The notes beneath the pieces were generated by a model. It saw only the letters and a program-made list of their open reading frames with translations, searched no databases and was not told the DNA's origin. Positions 4,332 through 30,842 of a stretch of DNA of 56,589 bases are shown piece after piece. The position numbers and the translations under genes are program-made. Position 1 is the stretch's first letter. Each line of letters starts with the position of its first letter. The stretch comes from an uncultured Flavobacteriales bacterium. GTDB lineage: Bacteria; Bacteroidota; Bacteroidia; Flavobacteriales_D; Crocinitomicaceae. Location of the stretch: assembly GCA_905478665.1 (NCBI GenBank), contig CAJQJL010000049.1:1-56589 (forward strand), read 5' to 3'.

Positions 4332-4730
4332 TTAAACGTTGAAATTCTTGAAGTCTTCTAATGAAACTTCAAATACATCGGCATAGTTTTGAAGTTTCTT
4401 CGTACTTAGTTTTTTGAATACTGACGGTTTCATGTGGCGCTTGATTTGCCATCTCATGAAACCTGTATATCCTGCCAAAACAGGCAAATCCATCAATTTT
4501 AATTCTAGAAAATAGAGCACTGGACTCGCTTCACCATTTAGGACTTTTTGCTTGGCCTCTTCTGTTCTTCTTTCTATTTCTTCCCAGGCATTGTCTAGTG
4601 CAACTGATTTTACTTCCCAGCCTTCGCTAAGGTCGGTCACATATTTACCATCTTTATTTTTGACATAACAAACCTCCCTTGTGAAATTATCCAAGGCACT
4701 CTTGTCTTGGGGAAGTTCTTCCTTTTTCAT
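4332..4730 (-). CDS. Hypothetical protein in darB-BtrH operon
   Basis: A 132-residue protein that I do not recognise. It is charged and soluble with no signal peptide or clear membrane span. Features are an N-terminal acidic-basic stretch, a central helical region rich in Glu/Lys (WEEIERRTEEAKQKVL), a short hydrophobic piece (LYFLELKLMDLPVLAGYTGF), and a C-terminal basic segment ending in a helix-like DVFEVSLEDFKNFNV. It lies 2 bases from darB upstream and abuts the BtrH-like gene downstream, so it is almost certainly co-translated with both. The middle-to-end region hints at a small helical adaptor. No function should be assigned. Confidence 0.82.
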   Translation of the reverse strand: MKKEELPQDKSALDNFTREVCYVKNKDGKYVTDLSEGWEVKSVALDNAWEEIERRTEEAKQKVLNGEASPVLYFLELKLMDLPVLAGYTGFMRWQIKRHMKPSVFKKLSTKKLQNYADVFEVSLEDFKNFNV

Positions 4731-8659: not shown

Positions 8660-9011
8660 CATTCATTTTAAGAAAGAATGTCTCGGCATTTTTAATTACC
8701 GCGCTTACTTTAATCTCTTCATCTTCACCCTTTGATATTTTAAGAATAACGTCGACATTGGCATCCGTTTTTGGATTGAGTATCGCCAGAAATTTGCAGT
8801 TCCCCATTTTCTTGAGGTTTAATTTAGTTCCCGTAGATTCGTTCATCAACTCTTTAACGATTTCCATTTGCACAACACCTGGTGTTACGGGGTTGTCGGG
8901 GAAATGGCCCTCAAATATACTGTGATCGGGATTGAGTTGGATCGAATACGTATGGCTTTCATCTTCCTTTACAGATGATTTTAGTGTATAGAAATTGTCT
9001 TTGAATAGCAT
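8640..9011 (-). CDS. Hot-dog fold 3-hydroxyacyl-ACP dehydratase (FabZ/FabA-like)
   Basis: A 123-residue single hot-dog domain. The motif FEGHFPDNPVTPGVVQME matches the FabZ active-site region (GHFP.NP..PGV), with the catalytic His in GHFP. The acidic partner expected later in the helix appears to be replaced or shifted (ME..KELMNE), so activity needs testing. It would remove water from beta-hydroxyacyl-ACP to give each double bond of the polyene. It is the last gene of the 19877->8640 operon, sharing one base with the LolA-like gene upstream (TAATG), and runs tail-to-tail into the glycosyltransferase gene. A second, different dehydratase-like protein lies at 14836-15255. Confidence 0.88.
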   Translation of the reverse strand: MLFKDNFYTLKSSVKEDESHTYSIQLNPDHSIFEGHFPDNPVTPGVVQMEIVKELMNESTGTKLNLKKMGNCKFLAILNPKTDANVDVILKISKGEDEEIKVSAVIKNAETFFLKMNASYFPA

Positions 9012-9634
9012 TAGAACTGCGTGAAATTTGAATCTGAAATTTGACCATTAAGTGTAACTGAAGAGAATGTGTAAACTATTTTATCTGCTTCAGTTTCTAT
9101 AAATATCATTTTTTTAAGCTCGAGCGATTTTTTATCAAAGTCCATTTTTATTTTTGAAATGTACTTCGACATTCTACTGTTCTTGGGTTTTAACACCAAT
9201 CTATAGGTCGACTCATTTTCGTAATAGTAGACGTTAAATTCTTTTTCATTTAAAAAATCACCACTAAATAACTGCATCATCAATGACTGGACCTTCTTAA
9301 TTATTTGATTGGAAGTAACATTCTTAACTTCTTTTCCGTCCTCAAATAGGCGGACTTTGGATCCATTGATAAGTACAATTTGTTTCTTAGGTAGAATGTG
9401 CTCCCATCTAATTTTGTTGGCCTCCTTGTACATCAGTTTTCCATTCCCCGTTTTGGGATTGTTGTACATACTAGAGTAAATAACTTCCTTGAAGTCTGCT
9501 GCAATTGCGCTTGTTGTTTTGGCTTGTTTGTTGATTTTGTCTTTTACAGCAGCCGAATTTTTAACCTTAGTGTAAGATTGCGCATTTCCCCCGAAAGAGA
9601 TAAGTAAAATGACGAAAAGTAAAAGTCTATGCAT
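9011..9634 (-). CDS. LolA-like outer-membrane lipoprotein carrier family protein
   Basis: A 207-residue periplasmic protein with a signal peptide (MHRLLLFVILLISFGGNAQS) and a LolA/LolB-like half-barrel: IAADFKEVIYSSMYNNPKTG, then GKLMYKEANKIRWEHILP, INGSKVRLFEDG and a long antiparallel-strand region. LolA proteins carry lipid moieties across the periplasm. Within aryl-polyene loci a LolA homologue is thought to ferry the lipid pigment to the outer membrane, and this is the best reading here. Its 3' end shares one base with the dehydratase gene. Its 5' end overlaps the deacetylase gene by 8 bases. Confidence 0.88.
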   Translation of the reverse strand: MHRLLLFVILLISFGGNAQSYTKVKNSAAVKDKINKQAKTTSAIAADFKEVIYSSMYNNPKTGNGKLMYKEANKIRWEHILPKKQIVLINGSKVRLFEDGKEVKNVTSNQIIKKVQSLMMQLFSGDFLNEKEFNVYYYENESTYRLVLKPKNSRMSKYISKIKMDFDKKSLELKKMIFIETEADKIVYTFSSVTLNGQISDSNFTQF

Positions 9635-14863: not shown

Positions 14864-15255
14864 TCAATTAATTTCTCTTCATTTGAATAGGCGCTCCCTT
14901 GGATTAAATGAATGTTGTCAAAAGTATTTAATATTTCAATTTTTGTCGAGATGTTGGCACCATTTAATGGCAAAGAATCAACAGTAAGTCGTGATACCGC
15001 ACCAATAAATCCAAGTTGACCTTCACCTTCACCCTTTAGGCTGTTAACATACCCAAATCCAGCGGCGCAGGTTTGAGCGATATTTTCAACCAAGGCTGAT
15101 TCAGAAAGAACATCGTTCTCTAAGAATAGATTCTCACTGTTTACTTCAAATGTACTTTCAAATCCTTTTTCGTCTGCAGCGATCAAATTGTCAATCATCA
15201 CAAACGGATCCCTTTGAGGAATGAAACGCGTAATATTTTCTTTTTCAATCAACAT
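14836..15255 (-). CDS. Hot-dog 3-hydroxyacyl-ACP dehydratase-like protein (ApeP/ApeI-like)
   Basis: A hot-dog protein of about 139 residues. Motifs are ITRFIPQRDPFVMIDNL, which matches the PhR.PF...D region of FabZ-like proteins with His replaced by Gln, and SALVENIAQTCAAGFGY, matching the helix with the catalytic Glu (LVENIAQT). The longest frame starts at 15309, deep inside the acyltransferase gene. ATG at 15255 (MLIEKENITRF) leaves only an 11-base overlap and fits the family. It probably catalyses or supports dehydration during polyene growth along with the other dehydratase at 8640-9011. Confidence 0.88.
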   Translation of the reverse strand: MLIEKENITRFIPQRDPFVMIDNLIAADEKGFESTFEVNSENLFLENDVLSESALVENIAQTCAAGFGYVNSLKGEGEGQLGFIGAVSRLTVDSLPLNGANISTKIEILNTFDNIHLIQGSAYSNEEKLIECQMKIVIA

Positions 15256-16114
15256 AGTAATTGTAAAAATTAAACCATTGAGCCGGGTACTTGCGCACCA
15301 TGGATTCAAGATGCTTCACATACTTTTCTGCAATTTCAATTTCCGAATTTGATTCAGTAATTGGGTCAGTTGCAAATAGGTCGTAGTGAAACTTTGATCC
15401 TTTCACGGCATATACAAAAGTAATAGGAACCTTGAACTTATGCGCCATAATAAATGGACCGGCTGGAAATTTAGCCTTTCCATCTAAAAAATCGAGTTCA
15501 ATGTGTTTTCCTTGATCGGTAACGCGGTCCGCATGAATAGCAATAAATTCGTTTCTTCTTAGTGCCTGATGCATAAGGATTAGGTGGGACATATCATCCT
15601 TTATAGGAATCAAATTATACTTAGGCCCACCTGTTTTTTGCTCCAGAAATTGTTTGATTTTCTGAACTTCAGCATCGAGCATAACTATGTTGATAGTGCT
15701 GGTAATTCGCTCATGGATTAAGTTTCCTGCGTTTTCCCAATTTCCCAGATGACCAGAGATCAAGATTCCACCTTTTTGATTCTCGTGCATTTCACGGAGT
15801 ATTTTTTCATTGTTAAAGGTGTGCGTAAACGCTTTTCGCTTGCTTGTTTGCATAGCAATCCGATCAATCAATGTTTGCCCGAAATTGTAGAAATTCTTGA
15901 ATATTATTTTACGGGTCTTCTTTTTTGAATACTTGAACCCAACGGTGTAAAACTGTTTGAGTCCGTTTCGTTGTTTTTTTGAAAAGAGGACAAAATAGGC
16001 TGAAACGAAGTAACAGAAGAAGTAAGAAACATTAAGGCCAAATGTCCGAATACAAAAAATGAAAAACTTATACCCTAATAAGGATCCTTTAGTTTTTCCG
16101 TCCCATTTTTCCAT
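15245..16114 (-). CDS. LpxL/HtrB-type lysophospholipid acyltransferase family protein
   Basis: A 289-residue membrane-associated acyltransferase. An N-terminal hydrophobic region (FFIFCIRTFGLNVSYFFCYFVSAYFVLF) is followed by the motif SGHLGNWENAG (HxxxxE type, His and Glu catalytic in LpxL/LpxM) and by IHADRVTDQGKHIELDF, equivalent to the second conserved block. LpxL enzymes transfer acyl chains from ACP to a lipid hydroxyl. In aryl-polyene loci the homologue is believed to attach the polyene to a lipid carrier. Here it is one candidate for joining the polyene acid to the resorcinol hydroxyl. Confidence 0.9.
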   Translation of the reverse strand: MEKWDGKTKGSLLGYKFFIFCIRTFGLNVSYFFCYFVSAYFVLFSKKQRNGLKQFYTVGFKYSKKKTRKIIFKNFYNFGQTLIDRIAMQTSKRKAFTHTFNNEKILREMHENQKGGILISGHLGNWENAGNLIHERITSTINIVMLDAEVQKIKQFLEQKTGGPKYNLIPIKDDMSHLILMHQALRRNEFIAIHADRVTDQGKHIELDFLDGKAKFPAGPFIMAHKFKVPITFVYAVKGSKFHYDLFATDPITESNSEIEIAEKYVKHLESMVRKYPAQWFNFYNYYVD

Positions 16115-17619: not shown

Positions 17620-18351
17620 TTAAGCGTAAATACCTCCGTTGATATTAATTACTTCTCCTGTGATGTAAGCTGCCTTGTCAGAAGCTAAAAAGCTTACTAA
17701 ATGTGCAACTTCTTCTGCTGTTCCAAATCGTTGAGCTGGTACCATTTGTTTCAATTGATCCTCATCTAGGTCACTCGTCATGTCAGAGATGATAAAACCA
17801 GGCGCAATTGCATTCACTGTAATCTTTCGCTTCGCTATTTCTTGTGAAAGAGCTTTTGTAGAAGCAATCATTGCTCCTTTGGCTGCAGAATAGTTCGTTT
17901 GTCCTGGATTTCCTTTCAATCCTGAAAGAGAAGCAACGTTGATGATGCGTCCAGAACGGTTTCTCAACATTTTTCTCAATACGGCTTGTGTACAATTGTA
18001 CATTCCTTTTACAGAAATATTCATAACGCTGTCCCAATCTTCTTCAGAAATCATTGGGAAAATATTATCGCGTGTAATTCCTGCGTTATTGACTAGTACT
18101 TCAACATGGTTCTCAGGATTCTCTTCTTGCCACTTTTCAATAACAGAACTAACTGCTGCTGAATCTTGGACATTAAATTGAAGTAATTCTCCTGTTCCTC
18201 CGTTTTCTTCAATTTGTTTGAGCGTATCTTTTGCTGCATCAACATTTGAAGAAAAATTAATCAAAATATGAAGCCCTAGGTCTTTGGCCAATTGCACAGC
18301 AATCGCTTTACCAATTCCTCGTGAGGATCCTGTTACAAGTGCACATTTCAT
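17620..18351 (-). CDS. FabG-type 3-oxoacyl-ACP reductase (SDR)
   Basis: A 243-residue short-chain dehydrogenase/reductase. The cofactor motif GSSRGIGKAIA, the NNAG block, Ser in NVASLSG, the YxxxK pair in NYSAAKGAM and the C-terminal GEVININGGIYA are all present, as in FabG. It reduces beta-ketoacyl-ACP to the hydroxy form with NADPH, the second step of each elongation cycle. It starts as ATGA inside the end of the tyrosine ammonia-lyase gene, so it is coupled to that gene. It is probably specific to the pigment pathway (compare ApeQ) rather than the housekeeping fabG. Confidence 0.94.
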   Translation of the reverse strand: MKCALVTGSSRGIGKAIAVQLAKDLGLHILINFSSNVDAAKDTLKQIEENGGTGELLQFNVQDSAAVSSVIEKWQEENPENHVEVLVNNAGITRDNIFPMISEEDWDSVMNISVKGMYNCTQAVLRKMLRNRSGRIINVASLSGLKGNPGQTNYSAAKGAMIASTKALSQEIAKRKITVNAIAPGFIISDMTSDLDEDQLKQMVPAQRFGTAEEVAHLVSFLASDKAAYITGEVININGGIYA

Positions 18352-19877
18352 AATTCAAATCGATTTGCTCTTAGTAAATCAGTAACCTTCGCAATGTTTT
18401 CTGCCTGTGGTACATCTTCCGTAACGGCTGGAGTTACATCACGAACCATTTTATATAGTTCTTCTGTTTTTGATCCGAGTAACTTTCGTTGGTCTTCGTC
18501 CAATAAATCAATTGCTTGACAAACAGACATAATCTGAATCGCCATAACTTGGAATCCATTTTCAATTACGTGACGCGCCATCATAGCACTGTTGGTTCCC
18601 ATACTGACAATATCTTGATTGTCATTGTTGTTTGGAATACTGTGCACGTACATTGGATTAGAAAGTGTTTGGCTTTCCGCAGTTGTAGAAACGGCCGTGA
18701 ATTGCATTCCTTGAATTCCAAAATTGAATCCTAGCGTTTTCATGTTTAAGAATGCTGGGAACTTACCATTGAGTGGTGAGTTGAGCAAGAAATTCAATTG
18801 TCGCTCTGCCAACATTGTTAGTCGAGTGATTACAATCTTAATCTTGTCCATTTCTAAGGAAACATAATCCCCATGGAAATTTCCACCATGGAAAACGTTT
18901 TGATCGTCTACACTAACAATTGGATTGTCGTTTGTTGAATTCAATTCGTTTTCAATGACCTTTTTTGCACTATCAAGCGTTTCAAGAACAGGTCCTAAAA
19001 TCTGAGGTACGCAACGAATCGAATAGTATTCCTGTATTTTTCTACTGAATTTTTTCCGTCCCATTTCAACGTTGTCCTTAAACAACTCTTCACGTTGACG
19101 GATAAGCTTACTATCTGAAAGGAAATCTCGCATTTGCGATGCAATTTCCTTTTGACCTTCGTGACGTTTCACTTTGTTCAATCCTTCTGAAAAAGAATCA
19201 TCAAATGCTTCAACAACCTCATTGATGATAGCTGAACTAGCTACTGACCAGTTTAATAGGCGATATGCATAAATGAGATTGATGGCACCAATTCCCGTCA
19301 TACATGATGTTCCATTCATTAAACCTAGTCCATCTCGCAATTGAACATTTAAAGGTTTAAGGTTTGCATCATTCAAGGCTTTGGATGCCTCAACGCGTTC
19401 TCCATCAACATAGACGTGCCCCTCACCGATAAGACTTAAAGCCAAGTGTGCAAGCTGAACAAGGTCTCCACTGGCACCAACGCCACCGTGTGAATAGATC
19501 TCAGGATTGATACGGTTGTTTAAGAATTCGACTAATTTTTCAATTACTCCAGCGCTTATTCCCGAATTTGCCTGTAAAAAGTTGTTGATTCGTGCTACCA
19601 AAATGGCGCGAACGTATTCTTCTCTTAGAACGGCACCTGCACCGCTTGAATGACTCCTAATCAGGTTGTATTGTAGTTCGTTGAGTTTATCATCATCAAT
19701 CTTGAACTGAGCCATGGGCCCGAATCCAGTGTTGATTCCGTAGATGATTTTGTCGCTGGAAAAGGACTTCAAAAAATTGAACGACTCATCGATCTTAGTG
19801 ACCAATTTTTCGTCCAGTTTGAATTCCTTATAACCTAACGCGTATTCCTCAAGTTGAGATAAATTTATATCATTCAT
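18348..19877 (-). CDS. Tyrosine ammonia-lyase (MIO-type aromatic ammonia-lyase)
   Basis: An enzyme of about 509 residues that removes ammonia from L-tyrosine to give 4-coumarate, the aryl starter of the flexirubin polyene. The self-processing MIO triad is Ala135-Ser136-Gly137 in GGVGASGDLVQLAHLAL. The substrate-pocket motif RSHSSG (near residues 74-79), GGNFHGDYVSLEMDK and SIPNNNDNQDIVSMGTNSA match the flavobacterial tyrosine-specific enzymes known from Flavobacterium johnsoniae, judged from memory of that family. The longest frame starts at TTG 19886; ATG at 19877 gives the family-like MNDINLSQLEEY. It is the first gene of the largest pigment operon, behind a candidate promoter at 19938-19945. 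Confidence 0.95.
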   Translation of the reverse strand: MNDINLSQLEEYALGYKEFKLDEKLVTKIDESFNFLKSFSSDKIIYGINTGFGPMAQFKIDDDKLNELQYNLIRSHSSGAGAVLREEYVRAILVARINNFLQANSGISAGVIEKLVEFLNNRINPEIYSHGGVGASGDLVQLAHLALSLIGEGHVYVDGERVEASKALNDANLKPLNVQLRDGLGLMNGTSCMTGIGAINLIYAYRLLNWSVASSAIINEVVEAFDDSFSEGLNKVKRHEGQKEIASQMRDFLSDSKLIRQREELFKDNVEMGRKKFSRKIQEYYSIRCVPQILGPVLETLDSAKKVIENELNSTNDNPIVSVDDQNVFHGGNFHGDYVSLEMDKIKIVITRLTMLAERQLNFLLNSPLNGKFPAFLNMKTLGFNFGIQGMQFTAVSTTAESQTLSNPMYVHSIPNNNDNQDIVSMGTNSAMMARHVIENGFQVMAIQIMSVCQAIDLLDEDQRKLLGSKTEELYKMVRDVTPAVTEDVPQAENIAKVTDLLRANRFEL

Positions 19878-19937
19878 AGTGCTCAATCTGGTCTTATTCT
19901 CTTGTGTTAATCTTTCCTTAACGTAAAATTAAACATG

Positions 19938-20051: not shown

Positions 20052-21104
20052 CTAGGTATTCACTCTAAGTTCTAAAATTGTGTGAAAGCTGTCTTCGTGT
20101 AAGTGGTGTTCTTTAACGCATTCAAATCCAGCCTTGTTAACGATGTATTTCATTGCTGTCGATGTGTACATTTTACTGTTTCCATTTGCAATTGCTGTGA
20201 AATACAAAGATGTTGCTACAAGGCTGTGTGTTGCTGCTGGAAAACGTTGGTTGTCAATGAACGTTTCCATGATGTAAACGCGTCCATCCTTAGAAATGTT
20301 TTTTCTAATTTTAAGGAGAATTTGTTCTATTTCATCTTCGCTGAAGCAATCTAAAAATTGACTCATCCAATATACATCTGCTCCACCTGGAATTTCCGAA
20401 GTAGGACTGAGCATGTCAATTTCCTGGTATTCAACACGGTCTCGAATATCTTCGATTGCCCCGACATTCTCTTTGGCTACCTTTATCTGTCCAGGAAGGT
20501 CAAACATTTTTACACGGACGTCCTTATTATATTTCGTACTTGCAATTGCCCATTTTCCTGTATTGCCGCCAATGTCAAAAATTTGTGATGGTTGATCTTT
20601 GAAGATAATTTGCAGTGCATCATCAAATGAATTGTCGGAATAAAAGTGGTCAAAATCAAACCATGATTTCTTCACTTGATCTGGCAATTGAGATAAGCCT
20701 TCATATACAGTTTCCCAATCTCCAAAGACTTTTAATCCTTCTGGCTTTCCATTTTGAATCGATTCCTTTAAAAAGAATAGACCTTCATAACATACGTCAT
20801 GCGTGAAGTATAGATTAACCTTTGTCATTTCATCGCGAAGTAAGAAATACCCAATTTTAGTGGTTATGTATAAATCATTCTCGTTCTTTTCAAGTATACC
20901 AGCTGCCTCGGCCATTTCAACTAAAACACGAACTCCATAGTCAGATACGCCAGTCTCCTTTGCGACATCTTCAATTGAAATCCCTGTTCTATGGTTGTGT
21001 ATGGATTCTAGCACGCCCAGTTCCAACATCGTGTATGCTGTCTCAAAAACAAAGGGGCTAAAAGCTATTTTGTGAGCTTCGTATAATGCATTAACTGCTT
21101 TCAT
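20052..21104 (-). CDS. SAM-dependent O-methyltransferase
   Basis: A 350-residue methyltransferase of the plant-like O-methyltransferase type. The N-terminal winged-helix dimerisation part spans roughly residues 1-95 (ISIEDVAKETGVSDYGVRVL; MAEAAGILEKNENDLYITT). The Rossmann SAM motif is FDIGGNTGKWA near residue 178, with MFDLPGQIKVA as the acidic-loop block and a later SQFLDCFSEDE region. Such enzymes methylate hydroxyl or ring carbons of small aromatics. It is transcribed alone, 166-175 bases upstream of the tyrosine ammonia-lyase gene. It probably tailors the phenyl ring of the pigment (flexirubins are often ring-methylated), which is inference. Confidence 0.9.
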   Translation of the reverse strand: MKAVNALYEAHKIAFSPFVFETAYTMLELGVLESIHNHRTGISIEDVAKETGVSDYGVRVLVEMAEAAGILEKNENDLYITTKIGYFLLRDEMTKVNLYFTHDVCYEGLFFLKESIQNGKPEGLKVFGDWETVYEGLSQLPDQVKKSWFDFDHFYSDNSFDDALQIIFKDQPSQIFDIGGNTGKWAIASTKYNKDVRVKMFDLPGQIKVAKENVGAIEDIRDRVEYQEIDMLSPTSEIPGGADVYWMSQFLDCFSEDEIEQILLKIRKNISKDGRVYIMETFIDNQRFPAATHSLVATSLYFTAIANGNSKMYTSTAMKYIVNKAGFECVKEHHLHEDSFHTILELRVNT

Positions 21105-21325: not shown

Positions 21326-24300
21326 GTGGGAAAATTTTTCGCAAATATCGTTTCCTTTTTTAATAGACATTTCCTTGTCTTTATAACCTTTTTAGTAGGC
21401 TGTATAGCACTTTTCTATTTTGGATTTCGGCATCTGAATTTGGATGAGAATATTTATTCAATTTTTCCTCAGGGTAAAGAATTTGAAAAATTCAATAATA
21501 TCCTGAAAGAAAATAACCTGAATAAGCAGATTGTTTTTTCCATTGATGCTGAAGGGAAAGAGATTGACGATTTATCGATTGAACTAGATTCCATTTCACA
21601 ATTGATTGAAACGGAGGTGGCAGGTCTTGTTTCGGAAATGGAAGTCTTTCGTGAGAACCAAGAGGAAACAGTTCTTAACTACCATTATGACAATTTTTCT
21701 TCGTTTTTAGATTCGAATGATTACAGTGAGATAGAGGGAAAGCTTCATCCTGATTCTATTGCAAGGTCTGTTGGTTCTATCACTGACCGACTGTCCTCAA
21801 TGAATGCATTCTTCTTTCGAAAAATCTTAGCGAAAGATCCATTGGGGATTGCCTGGGAGAAACTTAAAGACTTGAATCCGCGCTCTGATTCCTCAGCAAT
21901 GGCGGTGGAAGATGGAATCTTGTTTTCTTCGGATGGTAAACAAGCTTTGTTCACGGCTGTTCTCAATTTTGAATTGGATGACAACGTGAAGAACGAGGAG
22001 CTGAACAAAAAATTGATTCAACTCAGAAAGCATGTTGATTTTGATTATTTCGGAACCTTTCAGATCTCCTACGAGAATGCGCGACAAGTTAAGGAAGATA
22101 CGTTTGTGACCTTAATTGTCAGTCTTGGCCTTATTCTTCTTTTGCTGATTGTTTATTATCGGAGCATCCTAACACCGCTATACTTTATACTTCCCGCATT
22201 GTTTTCAGGATTCAGTGGCCTTGGGATGGTCGGCTATATTCATCCAGAGATTTCTGCTATTTCCATTGCTACGGCAGCAGTGTTGATGGGAATCGTCCTT
22301 GATTATTCTTTCCATTTCTTCACACATCTTAAACATTCTGGCGATTTAAAACAATCGGTACGGGAATTGAGTTTTCCGATGCTCGTAGGAAGCTTCACTA
22401 CCGTTGCGGCTTTTTCGGCGCTCATCTTCACAGATTCTGTGGTTTTGCAAAATTTTGGATTGATTGCCCTTTGCACGCTTGTTTCTGCGGCACTGTTTAC
22501 GTTATTGTTACTGCCATCCCTTCTTCATTTTACACGCTTCAAAATGAGGATAAGCAAGACAGAAGGCAAAGCTTGGCAAATGCCGAAGTGGATGTTTAGA
22601 ATTTCCATGTATGGGATTTTGATTCTAACGGTCGTATTCCTGTTTCGTGCAAATCAATTTCAATTTGATTCTGATTTAAATAATCTGAGTTTTCATACAG
22701 ATGAACTCGCAGAGAAGGAAGAGTATTACACAGGGATTAATCCGCATGAGGAGAAAAAACTGCATTTGTTTGTTTCAGCAGGAAGCCGTGTAGAGTTGGC
22801 CGAACAAAATTTTGAGCTGTACAAGTGCCTTGCAAATTTCAGAGATGAGCACGGTTTGGACGAGCTCATGTCTATTGCGCCGTATCAAATTCCTTCTTCC
22901 GTTAGTGAAGAGCGAGGAAGTCAGTGGCAATTGTTTTGGAAGGATCGTATTGATTCCAGTATGCAACAAATTCGTTCGGAAGCTGAACAATATGATTTTT
23001 CGTCGCAAGCATTTGATCCTTTTGAACAATGGGTGAAAGGAATGCAGAGTTCTGCGACTGAAGAATTGCAGTCAGAGGAGATTCTTGAGATGTTGGGATT
23101 GTCACGTTTTTTATATGCGACGGATAATGGATGGAACGCAATTACAAGCGTTGTTGTAAGTCGTGCTGATTTAGGATTGTTAAAGGATGAGGTAAACAAA
23201 GTTGAAGGCGTATACATTTTTGATGTGGCTGAAATGGCAAATACCTTAATGTTGACGGTTCAGGACGATTTCAATTATCTTTTGTTGTTTTCTTCCTTAC
23301 TTGTCTTCTTTTCCTTACTTGTAGTCTATGGAAGGCTGGAGTTAGCACTCTTTGCATTTTTACCAATGGTCATCAGTTGGATTTGGATTTTGGGGATTGC
23401 AAGCTTTTTCGACATCCAGTTCAATTTCGTCAACATTATTGTTGCAACCTTCATTTTTGGACTGGGTGATGACTTTAGCATATTCGTTACAGACGGTTTG
23501 CAACAAAAATATAAGCTCAATTCAGATGCGTTGAAGTCCTATAAATCGGCTATTGTTCTGTCTGGTTTGACAACAATTATTGGAACGGGAGCTTTGTATT
23601 TTGCCAAACATCCTGCTATCCATTCAATTGCGATAATCAGCGTTGTAGGAATTGCGTGCATAATGCTCGTAACATTGGTTGTTCAGCCAGCCCTCTATCG
23701 GTTTTTTATTACAAATCGAACAAAGCGGAAACGGTCGCCAATTACGTTCTTGGGACTGATCTACAGTATGTTCCTCTTTTCCTATTTTTTCATCGGTTGC
23801 CTTGTCTTAAATGTATTGCTTCTTCCGTTCATTCTTTTGCCAATACCTAAAAGTAAGAAACGTAAGTACCTGAATTTTGCAGTGTCTAAATTGGCTTGGT
23901 CAACACTCTTTTTAGGATTCCATGTCAAGAAAAAGATTTTGAATCCCGAGCGTTTGGACTTCTCGAAACCATCCATTATCGTTGCGAACCATTCGTCCTT
24001 CCTTGATATCCTCTTGATGATCATGATGAACCCAAAGGTGATTATCATGGTTAAGAAATGGGTGTATTATTCTCCAGTTTTCGGATTCTTCATTCGCTAT
24101 TCAGGATACTTATTCGTAGCAGAAGGAACGGAATACAATTTAACATTGATTCAAGGTCGAATTGACGACGGTTACTCAGTGATGATATTTCCTGAGGGGA
24201 CACGAAGTAAAGATGGAAAGATGAATCGGTTCCACAAAGGAGCGTTTTACCTTGCTCAAGAACTAAATCTTGATGTACAACCGATCTTAATTGTGGGAGC

Positions 24301-25156
24301 GCATTACGTGAACCCAAAGAATGACTTGATCATTAAATCAGGATCGCTGATTCTTGTGCCATTGGAACGAATCACGCCAGATGATGCCATTTACCAGCAG
24401 CGTTTTGGCTTGTTTACCAAAGATGTTCAGGCATTGATGCGGAAGGCGTTGAGTACTGCAAAACATGAGCTAGAGGATGCTTCCTATTTGAAAAATCGGG
24501 TACTTTACAATTACCTGTACAAAGGTCCAGTCTTGGAATGGTACGTACGTATAAAATGGAAGTTTGAAAAACAGAATTTTGCATTTTACGATCATTTAAT
24601 AGAAGACAGAGAGAAGATATACGATGTAGGGTGTGGCTTGGGTTATTTGAGCTATTTTTTACATTACCGTAATGAAGACAGAGCGATTGTTGGAATTGAT
24701 TACGACGCTGAAAAAATTGGTGTAGCGCAAAATGGTTATGACAAGAATTCGAATCTAAATTTTGTTCAGGGAGATATTAGAGATCTGAAAATAGCATCGG
24801 CGGATGTCGTTTTTTACAATGACGTATTGCACTATATGGGACATGCGAAACAATTTGAGGTGTTGAATATGACCGTCGACAATTTGAATGAAAATGGAAT
24901 CTTAGTTATTCGTGATGGAATTACTGATATGTCTGAACGTCACGATGTTACAAGGAGAACCGAAAAGTACTCTACACAAATTGTGAATTTCAATAAGACA
25001 ACGGAAGAATTATCCTTCTTTTCATCAAAAGATATTTTTAAATTCGCTGAAGAGCGGAACCTGGAATGTGAAATGATGGAGCAGTCGGCGAAAACGTCTA
25101 ATGTGGTTTTCGTGTTACGAAAAAGAGTCAATGACAGTCAAACAGAAAGAATATGA
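21326..25156 (+). CDS. MMPL/RND exporter fused to PlsC-type acyltransferase and SAM methyltransferase
   Basis: A 1276-residue three-part membrane protein starting at GTG. Residues 1-800 form an MMPL-type RND transporter. One span lies near residues 14-32, then comes a large outer loop, a membrane block near 257-400, a second outer loop and a second membrane block near 650-795. Residues 805-1060 form a 1-acylglycerol-phosphate acyltransferase-like domain with membrane anchor, NHSSFLD (His889, Asp894) and FPEGTRSKDG (955-964). Residues 1080-1270 form a class I methyltransferase with YDVGCGLGYL (DVGCG 1100-1104) and IVGIDYD. The parts occur separately in aryl-polyene loci; here they share one frame with no internal stop. 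It probably exports, acylates and methylates pigment lipid at the membrane. It overlaps the next gene by 26 bases. Confidence 0.93.
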   Translation: MGKFFANIVSFFNRHFLVFITFLVGCIALFYFGFRHLNLDENIYSIFPQGKEFEKFNNILKENNLNKQIVFSIDAEGKEIDDLSIELDSISQLIETEVAGLVSEMEVFRENQEETVLNYHYDNFSSFLDSNDYSEIEGKLHPDSIARSVGSITDRLSSMNAFFFRKILAKDPLGIAWEKLKDLNPRSDSSAMAVEDGILFSSDGKQALFTAVLNFELDDNVKNEELNKKLIQLRKHVDFDYFGTFQISYENARQVKEDTFVTLIVSLGLILLLLIVYYRSILTPLYFILPALFSGFSGLGMVGYIHPEISAISIATAAVLMGIVLDYSFHFFTHLKHSGDLKQSVRELSFPMLVGSFTTVAAFSALIFTDSVVLQNFGLIALCTLVSAALFTLLLLPSLLHFTRFKMRISKTEGKAWQMPKWMFRISMYGILILTVVFLFRANQFQFDSDLNNLSFHTDELAEKEEYYTGINPHEEKKLHLFVSAGSRVELAEQNFELYKCLANFRDEHGLDELMSIAPYQIPSSVSEERGSQWQLFWKDRIDSSMQQIRSEAEQYDFSSQAFDPFEQWVKGMQSSATEELQSEEILEMLGLSRFLYATDNGWNAITSVVVSRADLGLLKDEVNKVEGVYIFDVAEMANTLMLTVQDDFNYLLLFSSLLVFFSLLVVYGRLELALFAFLPMVISWIWILGIASFFDIQFNFVNIIVATFIFGLGDDFSIFVTDGLQQKYKLNSDALKSYKSAIVLSGLTTIIGTGALYFAKHPAIHSIAIISVVGIACIMLVTLVVQPALYRFFITNRTKRKRSPITFLGLIYSMFLFSYFFIGCLVLNVLLLPFILLPIPKSKKRKYLNFAVSKLAWSTLFLGFHVKKKILNPERLDFSKPSIIVANHSSFLDILLMIMMNPKVIIMVKKWVYYSPVFGFFIRYSGYLFVAEGTEYNLTLIQGRIDDGYSVMIFPEGTRSKDGKMNRFHKGAFYLAQELNLDVQPILIVGAHYVNPKNDLIIKSGSLILVPLERITPDDAIYQQRFGLFTKDVQALMRKALSTAKHELEDASYLKNRVLYNYLYKGPVLEWYVRIKWKFEKQNFAFYDHLIEDREKIYDVGCGLGYLSYFLHYRNEDRAIVGIDYDAEKIGVAQNGYDKNSNLNFVQGDIRDLKIASADVVFYNDVLHYMGHAKQFEVLNMTVDNLNENGILVIRDGITDMSERHDVTRRTEKYSTQIVNFNKTTEELSFFSSKDIFKFAEERNLECEMMEQSAKTSNVVFVLRKRVNDSQTERI

Positions 25157-26663
25157 TTTTGTCATCATCGGAAGTGGAATAGGTGGGCTAGTTTCTGCTG
25201 TCTTATTAGCGCTCGAAGGAAAATCTGTTATTGTTCTTGAAAAGAATCATCAAATAGGAGGGAGCCTCCAAGTCTTCAGTCGAGACAAGCGTATTTTCGA
25301 TACGGGTGTGCACTACATTGGGAGTCTGGATGAAGGAGAAAATCTGAACAAAATTTTCAAATATTTGGGAATCATGGATGATCTTTCAATGAAACGATTG
25401 GATGATGATTGTTTTGACCTCATTTATTTTCCAGATGGAAGCACATACAGCCATGGTCAAGGCTATGAAAAGTTCAAGGAAGGTCTATATGCCAATTTCC
25501 CTGATGAGAAAACAGGAATTGATGCCTTTTGTGACAAGATGGTTGAGATCTGTGATTTTTTTCCTTTGTACAATCTTGAAGATGAGGATTCATCTACGAA
25601 AAATTATGTGAGCAATCCTGAAATTCTTTCCATTAGCGCTTGGGATTTTGTTGAGTCGATCACTTCAGATAAACGTTTACAGTCTGTCTTGTTGGGAAGC
25701 GGACTGTTGTATGCTGGTGACCGTAAGACGACGCCAATGTATGTTGTGGCGCTAATCATGAATAGTTACCTGAAAGGGAGTTATCGGATGCTTAATGGAG
25801 GTTCTCAGATTGCGAAGCTTCTCACAAAAAAAATACACCAGCTCGGAGGACTTGTACTGAAACACCAGGACGTTGAAAGTGCTTCTTATTCTGACAAAAA
25901 TGTTTACTGTGTTCGCACAAAGGCAGGAGATGAATTTTTTGGGAAGCATTTTATTTCAAACACGCATCCAAAGAAAACGGTTGAAATTTTTGGTAAAGAT
26001 CGTTTCAGAGCTGCGTATCGACATCGATTGGATAAATTGAGCAATACAGTTTCATCATTCATGCTCTATCTTTCATTTGAGAAGGATACCTTTCCATATA
26101 TGAATTACAACATGTATGCTTATACGAAGGATGAAGTTTGGGATACCGTAGACTATAATAAAGAAGAGTGGCCTGAAGCCTTATTTATTTGTACTCCAGC
26201 AACGAAAGGACAGGGTGAATTTGCCGATTCAATGTCTGTGATGGCTTATATGGATTACAGTGAAGTTGAGGAATGGAGCGAGACGTTTAACACCGTAGCG
26301 ATGGCTGGAGAGCGAGGAGAAAGTTATGAGGAGTTTAAACTCAGGAAAGAAGAGCTAGTTATTAAGCGTCTAGAAAAGATATTTCCAGATTTGAGAAAAT
26401 CGATTAGAAGTGTTTACTCATCCACGCCTTTGACGTATAAAGATTATATAGGAACTGAAGATGGAGCATTGTATGGAATTCTGAAAGACCATAATAACAT
26501 TATGCTGTCGAAGATTAATGCAAGAACGCGTGTTCCGAATTTATATCAAACAGGACAAAATCTAGTGTTTCATGGAATACTTGGAGCAACAATAGGCGCC
26601 CTTGTCACTTGCTTTAATTTTATCGATAGCAAAGAATTGATTGAAAAAATAAAAGATGCATGA
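25131..26663 (+). CDS. NAD(P)/FAD-dependent oxidoreductase (CrtI/phytoene desaturase-like)
   Basis: A flavoprotein of about 510 residues. The N-terminal dinucleotide-binding motif is GSGIGGLVSAVLLALEGK, followed by VIVLEKNHQIGGSLQ, the typical CrtI/amine-oxidase beginning. The C-terminal FAD-contact block is NLYQTGQNLVFHGILGATIGALVT. Family members desaturate or isomerise conjugated chains or rings. In this locus it may act on the polyene chain or hydroxylate the ring. The frame opens at 25101, but ATG 25131 (MTVKQKEYDFVII) gives the family start and a 26-base overlap with the exporter gene. It runs into the next flavoprotein gene with ATGA overlap. Confidence 0.92.
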   Translation: MTVKQKEYDFVIIGSGIGGLVSAVLLALEGKSVIVLEKNHQIGGSLQVFSRDKRIFDTGVHYIGSLDEGENLNKIFKYLGIMDDLSMKRLDDDCFDLIYFPDGSTYSHGQGYEKFKEGLYANFPDEKTGIDAFCDKMVEICDFFPLYNLEDEDSSTKNYVSNPEILSISAWDFVESITSDKRLQSVLLGSGLLYAGDRKTTPMYVVALIMNSYLKGSYRMLNGGSQIAKLLTKKIHQLGGLVLKHQDVESASYSDKNVYCVRTKAGDEFFGKHFISNTHPKKTVEIFGKDRFRAAYRHRLDKLSNTVSSFMLYLSFEKDTFPYMNYNMYAYTKDEVWDTVDYNKEEWPEALFICTPATKGQGEFADSMSVMAYMDYSEVEEWSETFNTVAMAGERGESYEEFKLRKEELVIKRLEKIFPDLRKSIRSVYSSTPLTYKDYIGTEDGALYGILKDHNNIMLSKINARTRVPNLYQTGQNLVFHGILGATIGALVTCFNFIDSKELIEKIKDA

Positions 26664-27895
26664 TGGAAAATCAATATGACGTAGTGGTTATTGGTGCTGG
26701 ACCAGCGGGAGCTGTTGCGAGCACACGATTGATACAGGATGGTTTCTCTGTCTTAGTCCTTGAAAAAATGGAGTTTCCACGTTTTGTTATCGGAGAGAGT
26801 CTACTTCCTAAGTGTATGGATTATCTTGAAAAATTGGAACTTCTGGCAGCAGTTGAAGACAAGAGATTTCAAGTAAAAACAGGAGTGACTTTTTATCACG
26901 ATGAAGAGGTCTGTGAGTTTTCTTTCAGCGAGCGCTACACAGAAGGTTGGGATTACACCTATCAAGTAAAGCGTGCCGACTTCGACCATGCTTTAATTTT
27001 GGAAGCTCAGAAAAAGGGAGTGAATGTTTCGTTCAATTCTGAGGTGACGGATGTAAAAACTTCAGCCGAAGAACAAGTAGTTAGCTATTTGGATTCAACA
27101 GGGACAGAACATAAAATCCACGCGCGTTTTGTTGTCGATGCCAGTGGTTATGGTCGTGTCTTGCCACGTATGTTTAATTTGGAGAAGCCAGCCGTTTCGA
27201 TTCCTAGAGGCTCAATTTTTACACATGTCAAGGATTCTAAAAGAACAGAGAAGGCTTCTGATAATATCTTTGTGCATGCCTTTCGCGAGAATACTGCATG
27301 GGTATGGTCTATTCCTTTTTCAGATGGGACAGCTTCGGTTGGTGTCGTTGGGGAGGTAGACTTTATTAACGAATGTGCTGAAGACGATGGAGTAAAATTT
27401 AAAGAGCTTATTCGTGAGTTCCCAGGATTAGATGGTCGCTTCAAAGATTTGGAAGTGATGTTCGAACCTAAGAAAATTTTAAACTACTCAATCTCTGTAG
27501 AAAAGATGTACGGAGAAGGGTTTGTACTTTGTGGGAATAGCACAGAATTTTTAGACCCAGTCTTTAGCTCTGGAGTTACACTTGCCATTGCATCAGGTTA
27601 CCACGCTGCGGATCTTGTTTGTAATCAATTAAAAGGGCAGGAGGTAGACTGGGAAAGAGAATACGTAGATTTCATGAAGCACGGAATAGAAGTGTTTAGA
27701 AGCTATGTCGATGGATGGTATTCTGGTGATTTACACACTATTTTCTTTACCGAGAATGGAAATCCTGAATTTAAAAAACAGATTTGCTCAGTGCTTGCTG
27801 GATATGTTTGGGATAAAACAAATCCTTTCGTGAAAAGACATGCGACCGTTTTGCCGACCTTGGCTAAGGTTATTTCAATGGCTACGAAAACTTAA
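26660..27895 (+). CDS. FAD-dependent oxidoreductase with flavin halogenase signature
   Basis: A 411-residue flavoprotein of the geranylgeranyl reductase/tryptophan halogenase superfamily. GAGPAG (residues 12-17) binds FAD and FVIGESLLPKCMDYLEKL is the shared second motif. The halogenase hallmark WxWxIP is present as WVWSIPF (214-220), and Lys73 in QVKTGVTF sits where the catalytic lysine of flavin halogenases aligns. FVLCGNSTEFLDPVFSSGV is the third FAD block. Halogenases chlorinate phenols, pyrroles or indoles, and some flexirubins are chlorinated. So chlorination of the pigment ring is a good hypothesis, but a ring hydroxylase or saturase is possible. Its last 14 bases overlap the convergent ligase gene. 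Confidence 0.88.
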   Translation: MMENQYDVVVIGAGPAGAVASTRLIQDGFSVLVLEKMEFPRFVIGESLLPKCMDYLEKLELLAAVEDKRFQVKTGVTFYHDEEVCEFSFSERYTEGWDYTYQVKRADFDHALILEAQKKGVNVSFNSEVTDVKTSAEEQVVSYLDSTGTEHKIHARFVVDASGYGRVLPRMFNLEKPAVSIPRGSIFTHVKDSKRTEKASDNIFVHAFRENTAWVWSIPFSDGTASVGVVGEVDFINECAEDDGVKFKELIREFPGLDGRFKDLEVMFEPKKILNYSISVEKMYGEGFVLCGNSTEFLDPVFSSGVTLAIASGYHAADLVCNQLKGQEVDWEREYVDFMKHGIEVFRSYVDGWYSGDLHTIFFTENGNPEFKKQICSVLAGYVWDKTNPFVKRHATVLPTLAKVISMATKT

Positions 27896-29147
27896 TCTTT
27901 TCAGGTTTGCGAAGATGTTTAACGTAAACCTTCGATCTCAAAACGTTGGCTTCAATAAATTGAAATTTAGGAATCACCCGCAAACGCGCTTGACAGAGTT
28001 CCTTGATTTTTCCAAAAACTTCTAGCGATTCGATCTTTTCCTCCAGAAGAATTGTGATTTCATCGTTGTTTAGTTCGTCCTTGTTGATCAGAACCTTATA
28101 ACAGGAAATTTCACTAAACGATTCCATTACTTCAAAAATGGCCTTGGGGTAAAGCGTTGTTCCTCGGTATTTGATCATTTGTTTTTTTCTACCGATGATT
28201 GGCCCAAGACGCGGTGTATCTCTGCCGCATGAACACTTTTGGCGATAGACTTTTGCTATGTCTCCTGTTCGGTAACGAACAAGCGGCGTTCCCTCAACAT
28301 CTAAGGTTGAGACAACAATTTCACCTGATTCTCCATCCAAGGCTTCGTTTCCATCTTCTTTCAACACTTCGAGAAAAAGTAAATCTTCGTTTAAGTGACA
28401 TCCTTGCTGAACTTCACATTCTGAGAATGCAGCACCCATTTCTGTTGAAGCGTAGGTAGAGAAAAGCTTAACATCCCAATTATCCGCAATGCGCTTACCT
28501 AAGGTGTTGTATGAAAGATCATCATTTCGAATTGGTTCTCCAATGCACACAATTGCTTCAACTGATGAGTTCTGGAAATCAATATTGTTTTCTTTCGCGT
28601 AAGCTATGAGCGTAACAATGAAAGAAGGAACCGCAATTAGTTTCGTGGGTTTGTATTTAAGGATGGAGGCCCATTGCAATTGTGGAACACCAGGTCCAAT
28701 GCGAATCATTCCAGCGTCAAGTTCCTGTACACCTAAAAAGTAGGCGAGACCAGCCATAAATTGCTTGTCAATTGTCGTCAATAGTTGAAATAGATCTTCC
28801 GACGTACTTCCCATAAGTGCCAACGAGTCGCGCTCATTTTTTGCCAAACGAACCAAGTCGTTTTTTGTGAGGTACAACGAAATTGGATCACCTGTTGTTC
28901 CTGAAGTTGTAACGTACTCAGCTATTTTATTCTTAGGAACAGCTAAAAAACTCTCGTTGTTTGCGGCGAGATCTTCTTTTGAGGTGAAGGGCAATTTTTT
29001 ATAGTCGTCAATTCCGAAGTCATTCGTCAATTCAATGTGTCCCTTCAGTGTTTCTCGGTAATAGGGAGAATGCTCTGATGCGTAACGAATAAGTTTCCTT
29101 AAAGCTATCATTTGCTCACTGTTTTCTACCATCGTCGATTTATTCAT
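27882..29147 (-). CDS. AMP-binding ligase, phenylacetate/coumarate-CoA ligase-like
   Basis: An adenylate-forming enzyme of about 421 residues. The P-loop is YVTTSGTTGDPISLYLT, a later block is FSTYASTEMGAAFSE, and LVRYRTGDIAKVYRQKCSCGRDTPRLGP resembles the PaaK-type end with a Cys pair. It lacks the long C-terminal lid of 4CL enzymes and so belongs to the PaaK/ApeH-like group that activates aryl acids. In this locus the expected substrate is 4-coumarate from the ammonia-lyase, transferred to CoA or an ACP. ATG at 29147 follows GTG 29150, overlapping the upstream acyltransferase gene by 8 bases. Confidence 0.9.
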   Translation of the reverse strand: MNKSTMVENSEQMIALRKLIRYASEHSPYYRETLKGHIELTNDFGIDDYKKLPFTSKEDLAANNESFLAVPKNKIAEYVTTSGTTGDPISLYLTKNDLVRLAKNERDSLALMGSTSEDLFQLLTTIDKQFMAGLAYFLGVQELDAGMIRIGPGVPQLQWASILKYKPTKLIAVPSFIVTLIAYAKENNIDFQNSSVEAIVCIGEPIRNDDLSYNTLGKRIADNWDVKLFSTYASTEMGAAFSECEVQQGCHLNEDLLFLEVLKEDGNEALDGESGEIVVSTLDVEGTPLVRYRTGDIAKVYRQKCSCGRDTPRLGPIIGRKKQMIKYRGTTLYPKAIFEVMESFSEISCYKVLINKDELNNDEITILLEEKIESLEVFGKIKELCQARLRVIPKFQFIEANVLRSKVYVKHLRKPEKIKFS

Positions 29148-30819
29148 CACATTCTTTTACGAGTACATTTAGTTCTTCCCGAATTGCTTCTGAAGCCAAG
29201 TTTTTTTCCAGCGCAATTTTAAAATATTTCTTAGCCTCCTGGGGCTTTTCTTTTGCGAGGAAGTATCTACCCAGCATTTCATAAGTGATGTAGAGTTCCG
29301 CGTTTGATTCAATAAAGGACTTGATCTCGGTTGAACTTAACTTCAAAGAGGTTCCAAAATTGACAAATTTCGAAATTTTACTCTTCGTTGCCTTGTAGCT
29401 ATTAAATGATTGATAGGCGGGAGAATCCACGAATGGATCTTTTGAAATGTATTGAACAGACTCAATTTTCCCAGTTTCCGTCACCTTCTCAAGGTCATAT
29501 CCGACATATGTTCCCAATTGAAAATTCTGCGTAGAAACATAAAACAAGTGCTTTGCAGGTTGGATTACAACACTGTGATGTGCTATTAGTTGATTTATCG
29601 CTCTTGGATTACCCATTCCCAACGTATCTTCTTTATTTCCATGCTGATCACGTAGTATTTTGACAGCATCTTGTGGGCCAAATTGATCTTTTCTACCAAG
29701 CAAGTCTTTAACTCTGTCGTAGCGAAACTTCGAATCGCTTTCTTTAATGTTTTCTTTGTTGATGGGATCGTTTATAAACGCATCTGATTGGTAGTGATTG
29801 GAACAAATAAGTTCATTTGTCTCAGGGTTGTAGACCCCCAATTTTGTAGGAGACTTCTCAATGAGTGCTGCCTTTCCATCTTTATTAGAACTGATAAGCA
29901 GTGTTTCTGATACAAAAGTCTTTCTTTTTTTCGCAATAGCAATCGCTTCGTCAATTGTCTCGGCGTATTGAAGAATTTCTCGGGCCAACAAAGAAATTGG
30001 CGTTTTTGAAGAGGTTGGTAAATCAGATTTTGAAGCATTAATGGTAACGCTCAGACCTTTGTCGTTCAGACCAGAGACAACTCCTGTAAATCCTGCCCAT
30101 GAGTACGATACAAATGCATGTCCTTTGTCTGGTTTTACAAAAAGAACAATTTTCTCTTCTGCAAATTCATCGCCAACGTAAAAGTCAAAATTGCGACCAA
30201 CTAATAATCCACCGTCCTCGGTTTTTTCATTGCGTAACGCAAATGACGTACAACCGACCATACTATAATCGTTGAGTGCGTGACCAATGTCATGTGCGGC
30301 GTGATAGTTCAGTATTCGGTCGTATTTTGGTGCGATGTAGTTGTATTCATCCGAAAAGGCTTGAGAAACGCCGTAAATTTCCTGTTGATTTTCCAAAGGA
30401 ATGTTGTTCGGTAGATCTTTGTTAAAGAAACCAAGCATCAAACGCAGGAATTGTTGCCACGTCTGGCTAGGAACAAAATTATTGATTTGACCTACAAAGA
30501 TTTCTTCTTGTTTTTGTATCAGCTCTTTAGCCAGTTCCCCGTAAATTAATCCTCGTTCGTAAGGAGCACCTTCAATGTACATTTCCCAGATTCCCTGTTC
30601 ATTTTTCTTCAGCCAGTTGTTGCCGAGAACGTAATGGTTTTCTCCTACTTTTTGGCGTTCTCCAATTTCTAGTTGAGGCACCTCAGGTGTCGAAATATTA
30701 GAAACGATAATGATGTAAAGGATTAGCACGAAAAGAAAGCCAAAAAACAATTCTAATGTACCAACTATGCTTTTGAATAGAACAAGTAGGATTCGTATGG
30801 GTAAATTCCGTTTCTTCAT
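29140..30819 (-). CDS. C45-family (acyl-CoA:6-APA acyltransferase-like) membrane-anchored protein
   Basis: About 559 residues. An N-terminal membrane span (LVLFKSIVGTLELFFGFLFVLILY) is followed by an Ntn-hydrolase domain. The family nucleophile is the Cys of MVGCTSFALRN (about Cys190 from the ATG), with GGLLVGRNFDFYVGDEF downstream. The C-terminal 60 residues form a tetratricopeptide-like pair (LGRYFLAKEKPQEAKKYFKIALEKN). C45 proteins self-cleave before the Cys and then hydrolyse or transfer acyl groups, as in penicillin biosynthesis. The membrane anchor fits a lipid substrate. The first frame codon is TTG 30837, but ATG 30819 follows a TATCTTTG promoter element, so I use it. It could form or break the ester of the pigment. 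Confidence 0.87.
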   Translation of the reverse strand: MKKRNLPIRILLVLFKSIVGTLELFFGFLFVLILYIIIVSNISTPEVPQLEIGERQKVGENHYVLGNNWLKKNEQGIWEMYIEGAPYERGLIYGELAKELIQKQEEIFVGQINNFVPSQTWQQFLRLMLGFFNKDLPNNIPLENQQEIYGVSQAFSDEYNYIAPKYDRILNYHAAHDIGHALNDYSMVGCTSFALRNEKTEDGGLLVGRNFDFYVGDEFAEEKIVLFVKPDKGHAFVSYSWAGFTGVVSGLNDKGLSVTINASKSDLPTSSKTPISLLAREILQYAETIDEAIAIAKKRKTFVSETLLISSNKDGKAALIEKSPTKLGVYNPETNELICSNHYQSDAFINDPINKENIKESDSKFRYDRVKDLLGRKDQFGPQDAVKILRDQHGNKEDTLGMGNPRAINQLIAHHSVVIQPAKHLFYVSTQNFQLGTYVGYDLEKVTETGKIESVQYISKDPFVDSPAYQSFNSYKATKSKISKFVNFGTSLKLSSTEIKSFIESNAELYITYEMLGRYFLAKEKPQEAKKYFKIALEKNLASEAIREELNVLVKECDE

Positions 30820-30834
30820 AGATAAATCAGCAAT

Positions 30835-30842
30835 CAAAGATA
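30835..30842 (-). promoter_or_regulatory. Candidate -7 element for C45 acyltransferase-ligase operon
   Basis: TATCTTTG on the minus strand matches TAnnTTTG and lies 15 bases before the ATG at 30819, giving a very short leader. It excludes an upstream start at 30837 and leaves little room for a start of the rightward gene at 30853. Confidence 0.45.

What the first reader, a model, noticed from the sequence alone, without database searches (positions are those of the whole stretch)
21326..25156. A three-activity fusion: MMPL exporter, PlsC acyltransferase and methyltransferase in one frame
One open frame of 1276 codons carries a full RND/MMPL transporter, a membrane acyltransferase with NHSSFLD and FPEGTRS, and a class I methyltransferase. 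In other aryl-polyene loci these are usually separate genes. A physical link of transport with two modifications suggests that lipid tailoring is coupled to export.
Basis: partly seen in the sequence, partly recalled or inferred. Interest (0 to 1): 0.7.

Follow-up and report, generated by a model that had tools for sequence, protein, structure and literature searches.

The report
Exporter-acyltransferase-methyltransferase fusion of flexirubin clusters
A pigment-making gene cluster carries one long protein that joins a membrane exporter with two modifying enzymes; the fusion is real but widespread and already named in databases, and in one large group of relatives its third enzyme part looks inactivated yet is still kept.

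Summary
In detail: window 21326-25156 (+) is one open frame of 1276 codons with MMPL/RND transporter, PlsC acyltransferase and class I methyltransferase (MT) domains, in a flexirubin/dialkylresorcinol cluster. It is not unusual there. In a class sample of 395 genomes, 64 of the 68 with FlxA hold a match, and 53 of the 69 matches span all three domains in one frame (window included). RefSeq names the architecture [quoted passage not shown] in Aureispira. Against the E. coli aryl-polyene cluster, the transporter and acyltransferase correspond to ApeM and ApeD. The MT is not the ApeB counterpart; that is the neighbouring separate gene FlxJ (46% identity). In 32 of 80 aligned MT-bearing sequences the MT lacks key SAM-site residues (Asp1100 and Asp1125 in 0 of 32, against 46 and 48 of 48). 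In 11 pairs tested the degenerate domain is still under purifying selection, weaker than on the rest of the protein. Most likely the protein finishes a pigment-lipid at the inner membrane and exports it; coupling and substrates are inferred.

The parts
21326..25156 (+). fused gene, 1276 aa: MMPL transporter / PlsC acyltransferase / class I methyltransferase
   Evidence: homologues
21326..23725 (+). MMPL/RND transporter half (residues 1-800); one hydrophobic segment, loop 38-254, hydrophobic cluster 255-442, loop 443-647, hydrophobic cluster 648-796: the usual RND layout
   Evidence: Pfam MMPL, Kyte-Doolittle profile, family-profile match to E. coli ApeM E 6e-49 (plain blastp of the window's half gave no ApeM hit)
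23738..24448 (+). PlsC/AGPAT acyltransferase with hydrophobic stretch 804-844; NHSSFLD 23987-24007, FPEGTRS 24188-24208
   Evidence: Pfam PF01553; PDB 5kym PlsC E 2e-14; ApeD E 1e-14 by blastp, 2.5e-28 by profile
24476..25153 (+). class I SAM methyltransferase domain, motif I DVGCGLG 24623-24643; intact here
   Evidence: Pfam PF13847; carries the residues conserved in 44-48 of 48 intact sequences, itself included
20052..21104 (-). separate methyltransferase of the FlxJ family, the counterpart of E. coli ApeB; divergent neighbour of the fusion
   Evidence: NCBIfam NF053543 451 bits, below its cut-off of 560; 46% identity to ApeB, E 3e-113
25101..26663 (+). CrtI/carotenoid-isomerase-like FAD oxidoreductase; the likely start at 25131 overlaps the end of the fused gene; the usual downstream neighbour
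   Evidence: same kind of neighbour in 47 of 58 flanks
26660..27895 (+). FAD oxidoreductase of the halogenase / geranylgeranyl-reductase type
27882..29150 (-). FlxY acyl-CoA ligase
   Evidence: NF053551 over cut-off
29140..30837 (-). C45 autoproteolytic acyltransferase/hydrolase
   Evidence: NF040521 over cut-off
18348..19886 (-). FlxA tyrosine ammonia-lyase, marker of flexirubin clusters
   Evidence: NF053541 798 bits, cut-off 700
17620..18351 (-). FlxB reductase
   Evidence: NF053542 over cut-off; ApeQ 47%
15245..16114 (-). LpxL-like acyltransferase, counterpart of the acyltransferase half of ApeJ
   Evidence: ApeJ residues 255-549, E 4e-23
9011..9634 (-). LolA2 flexirubin carrier
   Evidence: NF053544 over cut-off
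7493..8659 (+). glycosyltransferase, counterpart of the GT half of ApeJ
   Evidence: ApeJ residues 8-257, E 2e-34
4733..5878 (-). DarB, dialkylresorcinol ketosynthase
   Evidence: NF053539 over cut-off
4332..4730 (-). DarG
   Evidence: NF053545 over cut-off
3321..4331 (-). DarH acyltransferase
   Evidence: NF053550 over cut-off

Best explanation
The gene encodes the flexirubin cluster's inner-membrane finishing and export protein. The PlsC domain, on the cytoplasmic side right after the last transporter helix, transfers an acyl chain (aryl polyene or fatty acyl from an acyl carrier protein) to an alcohol of the pigment's lipid part, the role of ApeD. The C-terminal methyltransferase adds a methyl group to that same lipid or to a cluster intermediate at the membrane; it is not the ring methylase, which is FlxJ. 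The MMPL half (the role of ApeM) then lifts the finished lipid out of the membrane to LolA2, which carries it to the outer membrane. Shown: domains, intact motifs, cluster, correspondence with ApeM, ApeD and ApeB, spread of the fusion, loss of the MT active site in one large clade. Inferred: substrates, order of steps, sidedness, direct hand-over between domains.
For: Domains and motifs; RND layout with a hydrophobic stretch before the AT; cluster with FlxA, FlxB, FlxY, Dar and LolA2 genes; fusion-type match in 64 of 68 FlxA genomes of 395; counterparts in E. coli: MMPL-ApeM (profile only), AT-ApeD, FlxJ-ApeB, GT and LpxL-like gene-ApeJ; E. coli apeD mutants make late intermediates read by the authors as impaired in attachment to the lipid anchor (PMC8253772, passages seen); LolA2/LolB2 were always found in flexirubin loci (PMC11885536, passages seen).
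Against: No substrate has been shown for any of the three domains. The MMPL-ApeM link rests on a family profile; blastp of the window's transporter half gave no ApeM hit at E 0.01. G118 and G347 keep the transporter but lack AT and MT (812 and 834 aa frames), and G099 has FlxA and Dar genes with no fusion-type match, so neither is universally needed. In C. pinensis flexirubin the label from methionine showed one methyl, on the polyene part (PMC3992019 section 7), which leaves no known methyl in that pigment for a fused MT. Structure prediction of the AT-MT half was too poor to judge contacts (pLDDT 51).
Confidence: 0.55

Rival explanations
1. The fused methyltransferase is the ring C-methylase of the aryl head group, as ApeB is in E. 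coli.
For: It lies in the cluster and is intact in the window; FlxJ scores below its own NCBIfam cut-off here (451 of 560 bits).
Against: FlxJ is the ApeB counterpart (46% identity over 345 aa, E 3e-113) while the fused MT has no blastp hit to ApeB and its profile hits ApeB only at E 7e-5. A FlxJ match (E 1e-30 or better; only 3 of 80 genomes exceed the curated cut-off) is present in 37 of 46 genomes with an intact fused MT (hand tally, MT state); 9 of 46 lack it, which leaves room for this reading in those.
Confidence: 0.12
2. The AT domain makes the polyene-dialkylresorcinol ester itself, and the transporter exports finished flexirubin.
For: Flexirubin is such an ester (PMC3992019 abstract), and a fusion-type match is in 64 of 68 FlxA genomes.
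Against: The AT resembles ApeD, and the E. coli cluster has no gene annotated for resorcinol synthesis (Table 1). Other candidate acyl-transfer enzymes are in the cluster (C45; DarH; LpxL-like). G118 has FlxA but no AT of this kind within 20 kb of its transporter.
Confidence: 0.25
3. The methyltransferase domain is already mainly structural everywhere: a C-terminal cap on the exporter-acyltransferase whose catalysis matters little.
For: It decayed in at least one large clade and perhaps a second time while the fusion was kept; selection on it there is weaker than on the rest of the protein.
Against: In 48 intact sequences (window included) most SAM-site residues and a second set (T1209, E1213, S1216, N1223, N1259) are kept in 48 of 48, as expected of an active enzyme.
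Confidence: 0.13
4. The fusion is an assembly or sequencing artefact.
For: The genome is a 185-contig draft, 89% complete.
Against: Many other genomes carry the same frame, as do two plasmid records.
Confidence: 0.01

Closest known systems
RefSeq 'trifunctional MMPL family transporter/lysophospholipid acyltransferase/class I SAM-dependent methyltransferase' (WP_264793640.1, Aureispira anguillae plasmid pAUEa)
   Same: Same three domains in the same order; next genes are FAD oxidoreductase, C45 and AMP ligase; 31.8% identity over 99% of the window protein
   Different: Sequence divergence; in the window FlxY and C45 are on the opposite strand and a further FAD oxidoreductase lies between. [quoted passage not shown]
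E. coli CFT073 ApeM + ApeD (aryl polyene cluster)
   Same: Profile matches of the transporter and acyltransferase families (E 6e-49 and 2.5e-28); same cluster context of ketosynthases, ACPs, LolA, GT and thioesterase
   Different: Separate genes in E. coli; no own counterpart of the fused MT there; the window's transporter half alone has no blastp hit to ApeM
FlxJ / ApeB methyltransferases
   Same: SAM methyltransferase of the same cluster
   Different: Separate gene at 20052-21104; not close kin of the fused MT
HpnN hopanoid transporter / HAE3 RND transporters
   Same: Best NCBIfam transporter families and nearest solved structures by sequence for the MMPL half
   Different: Far below the family cut-offs (114 of 752 bits); the solved chains, 877-883 aa, have no room for the two enzymes

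Membership tests
RefSeq trifunctional MMPL/lysophospholipid acyltransferase/class I MT proteins | three domains in this order in one frame | tested here: met
RefSeq trifunctional MMPL/lysophospholipid acyltransferase/class I MT proteins | located in a flexirubin/aryl-polyene cluster (my criterion, not RefSeq's) | tested here: met
   (G017 is an exception: no cluster hit within 20 kb)
MMPL/RND transporters | two MMPL repeats and large loops after the first helix of each half | tested here: met
MMPL/RND transporters | proton-driven lipid export | not testable with these tools
   no assay
PlsC / AGPAT acyltransferases | NHxxxxD and FPEGTR motifs | tested here: met
PlsC / AGPAT acyltransferases | acyl transfer to lysophosphatidate | not testable with these tools
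   TIGR00530 score 77.5, below its cut-off of 103
class I SAM methyltransferases | motif I DxGCGxG and acidic residue after strand 2 | tested here: met
   D1100, G1102, C1103, G1104, G1106 and D1125 present; each in 46-48 of 48 intact sequences
FlxJ/ApeB ring methylases | close sequence relation of the fused MT to ApeB | tested here: not met
   no blastp hit, profile E 7e-5 only, while FlxJ next door gives E 3e-113

The most novel reading that the evidence does not exclude
The window's protein would be the ancestral, still catalytic form, methylating a pigment-lipid that nobody has yet described.
Probability: 0.4. Interest if true: 0.5.

Novelty: new member of a known kind. Interest (0 to 1): 0.33.

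Why it matters
Flexirubins are a classic marker pigment of Bacteroidota, and how they are finished and placed in the outer membrane is not settled in the papers seen here. The comparison turns this into tests: the fused methyltransferase has a substrate that the known pigment structure does not explain, and nature offers relatives with the MT intact, degenerate, or with AT and MT missing. It also shows that a name such as 'trifunctional' may mislead for relatives whose third domain looks dead.

Tried and rejected
Structure prediction of the AT-MT half (477 aa, 3 sequences) gave pLDDT 51; the MT alone gave pLDDT 56, pTM 0.60. A Foldseek search with the latter listed class I methyltransferases first, phenolic O-methyltransferases and CmoA among them, but the model is too poor to read a substrate from it.

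A link between FlxJ loss and MT decay looked strong in raw counts (FlxJ match in 37 of 46 genomes with intact, 6 of 32 with degenerate, 1 of 2 without the MT; hand tally of the 80 genomes). Of the 46, 26 were aligned and 20 judged intact only by the span of their match. It rests on two changes of MT state on the tree; independent pairs on supported branches: 1. I do not claim it. The tree is a quick one with long-branch warnings.

Apparent splits: G784 is broken by a run of N; G607 has the MT in a 204-aa frame that begins without a Met at the break, so a frameshift is likelier than a true separate gene. Neither was counted as a natural unfused form.

Literature: 'trifunctional MMPL' phrases, 0 papers. 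Flexirubin with MMPL/acyltransferase (20 of 176 listed), with exporter/methyltransferase (20 of 415), aryl polyene with acyltransferase/methyltransferase/LolA (20 of 55), flexirubin with RND/fused (15 of 50), with transporter/methyltransferase (12 of 28), aryl-polyene lipid (2 of 2): I saw none that describes the fusion, but only listings and abstract starts of most. I read passages of PMC8253772, PMC3949708, PMC11885536 and PMC9606717, and the outline, passages and section 7 of PMC3992019. [quoted passage not shown] supplementary tables could not be read. A search for chlorinated or unmethylated Cytophaga johnsonae pigments gave nothing usable in its 12 listed of 1,062 papers.
Full report
What is there. 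The frame at 21326-25156 is real: 1276 codons from GTG to stop. Pfam gives MMPL in two stretches, Acyltransferase at residues 873-989 and Methyltransf_31 at 1093-1210. Hydrophobicity shows the usual RND layout (one segment, loop, cluster, loop, cluster), then a further hydrophobic stretch 804-844 just before the acyltransferase. With an RND fold the C-terminus, and so both enzymes, would be in the cytoplasm (recalled for RND transporters, not tested here).

Where it lies. The surroundings are a flexirubin cluster. Over their curated cut-offs are FlxA, FlxB, FlxY and C45 and DarB, DarG, DarH and LolA2; FlxJ is recognised below its cut-off (451 of 560 bits). The fused gene diverges from flxJ and overlaps a CrtI-like oxidoreductase gene downstream. 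In the flanks (about 1.5-1.8 kb; one only 80 bases) of 58 relatives, the best match downstream is the CrtI-like gene in 47, another cluster gene in 7 and none in 4. Upstream it is the glycosyltransferase in 21, another CrtI-like gene in 20, flxJ divergently in 5 and none in 12 (the 20 relatives had flanks too short to count).

How common it is. In a sample of 395 genomes of the class, window included, 69 had a match at E 1e-60 or better. Of these, 53 span all three domains in one frame (match from residue 150 or before to 1200 or beyond), 8 end at 1100-1200 as the degenerate MTs do, 2 are transporter only (G118, G347) and 6 are partial spans (G607, G501, G585, G402, G553, G523), of which only G607 was examined. 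FlxA scores fall in two groups, 68 genomes at 614 bits or more (62 over the cut-off) and the listed rest at 391 or less; 64 of the 68 also hold a fusion-type match, G118 among them. The 4 FlxA genomes without one are G099 (100% complete) and G452, G573, G685 (83, 68 and 62% complete). The 5 matches without FlxA are G347, G394, G585, G599, G719. In the phylum sample of 395, 104 genomes matched at E 1e-20 but 71 of these only as single-domain relatives; 33 hold a transporter-type match at 2e-73 or better: 6 with full span, 25 with degenerate-type span, 2 transporter only. In the window's family sample of 200, 44 matched; 40 are in one frame, 34 with full and 6 with degenerate-type span, and 4 are partial or broken. 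Two plasmids carry it, and RefSeq names the Aureispira protein with exactly these three activities, though the Persicobacter one only as an acyltransferase.

What each part corresponds to. Against the E. coli CFT073 aryl-polyene cluster (gene letters from PMC8253772 Table 1, assigned by order), the window's acyltransferase hits ApeD (29% identity over 126 aa, E 1e-14; profile 2.5e-28). The transporter family profile hits ApeM (E 6e-49), though blastp of the window's transporter half gave no ApeM hit at E 0.01. The glycosyltransferase and the LpxL-like gene match the two halves of ApeJ. FlxJ matches ApeB at 46% identity. The fused methyltransferase has no blastp hit there and only a weak profile hit to ApeB (E 7e-5). 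It is therefore an additional methyltransferase, and the ring methylase is FlxJ by this comparison. The window's genome has no second match to the fused MT domain at E 0.001.

The third domain in relatives. I compared 82 sequences, the window among them (48 intact MT, 32 degenerate, 2 without AT and MT). In the degenerate set Asp1100, Trp1072, Asp1125, His1169 and Tyr1170 are kept in 0 of 32, against 46, 47, 48, 48 and 48 of 48. Some positions are kept (Gly1106 in 32, Arg1119 in 31, Leu1112 and Ala1134 in 27 of 32). Over the last 82 positions the degenerate sequences have 0-38 letters, the intact ones 71-83. Profile comparison still finds the two versions homologous over 114 columns (probability 98.5). 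Close pairs show dN/dS of 0.07-0.23 for the degenerate domain in 11 pairs, against 0.03-0.06 for their MMPL part (10 pairs, one saturated), 1.6 to 5.2 times as high. Intact MT domains give 0.045-0.18 in 5 of 8 pairs (3 saturated), 1.1 to 2.2 times their MMPL value; several synonymous distances exceed 1, so these figures are rough. The degenerate domain is thus relaxed but constrained. On a quick, unrooted tree of the MMPL-AT part the MT state changes twice: in one clade holding 31 of the 32 degenerate sequences and in G394. That it is decay rather than the ancestral state follows from the intact SAM site in the other lineages (inference).

How it most likely works. The protein joins the acylation step that in E. 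coli appears to be needed for attachment of the polyene to its lipid anchor (apeD mutants make late intermediates; PMC8253772 passages) to the exporter, with an extra methylation in many lineages. LolA2 and LolB2 may carry the pigment onward (proposed in PMC11885536, passages). The methyl acceptor is unknown: C. pinensis flexirubin shows one methionine-derived methyl, on the polyene part (PMC3992019 section 7), which FlxJ would account for. Whether C. pinensis itself has an intact fused MT was not checked.

Verdict. Observation confirmed; interpretation partly supported; a member of a known, database-named architecture without published function that I could find in the searches listed. The added value is the reassignment of the ring methylase to FlxJ and the pseudo-methyltransferase branch.

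Noticed in passing
L150 (NZ_AP026868.1) and L151 (NZ_AP025298.1): Flexirubin-type genes lie on plasmids: the fused gene with three neighbours on Aureispira anguillae pAUEa, and a long run of cluster genes on Persicobacter psychrovividus pPP6.
   Followed up: partly
   Followed up: no
G099 (L146, L147): A genome with FlxA, FlxY, DarB, DarG and DarH but no fusion-type match, and no LolA2, GT or deacetylase match in the 27 kb read.
   Followed up: partly
G017 (L013, L049, L050): Fused gene with no cluster gene within 20 kb on either side, although FlxA and FlxJ are elsewhere in the genome.
   Followed up: no
L085, L086, L089, L091, L092 and others of family f1: The fused gene has a CrtI-like oxidoreductase gene on both sides in 20 of 58 flanks; their role in an aryl-polyene pathway is unclear.
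   Followed up: no
G118 (L080), G347 (L081): Probable natural truncations: exporter frames of 812 and 834 aa without acyltransferase and methyltransferase, placed among fused relatives on the quick tree.
   Followed up: partly
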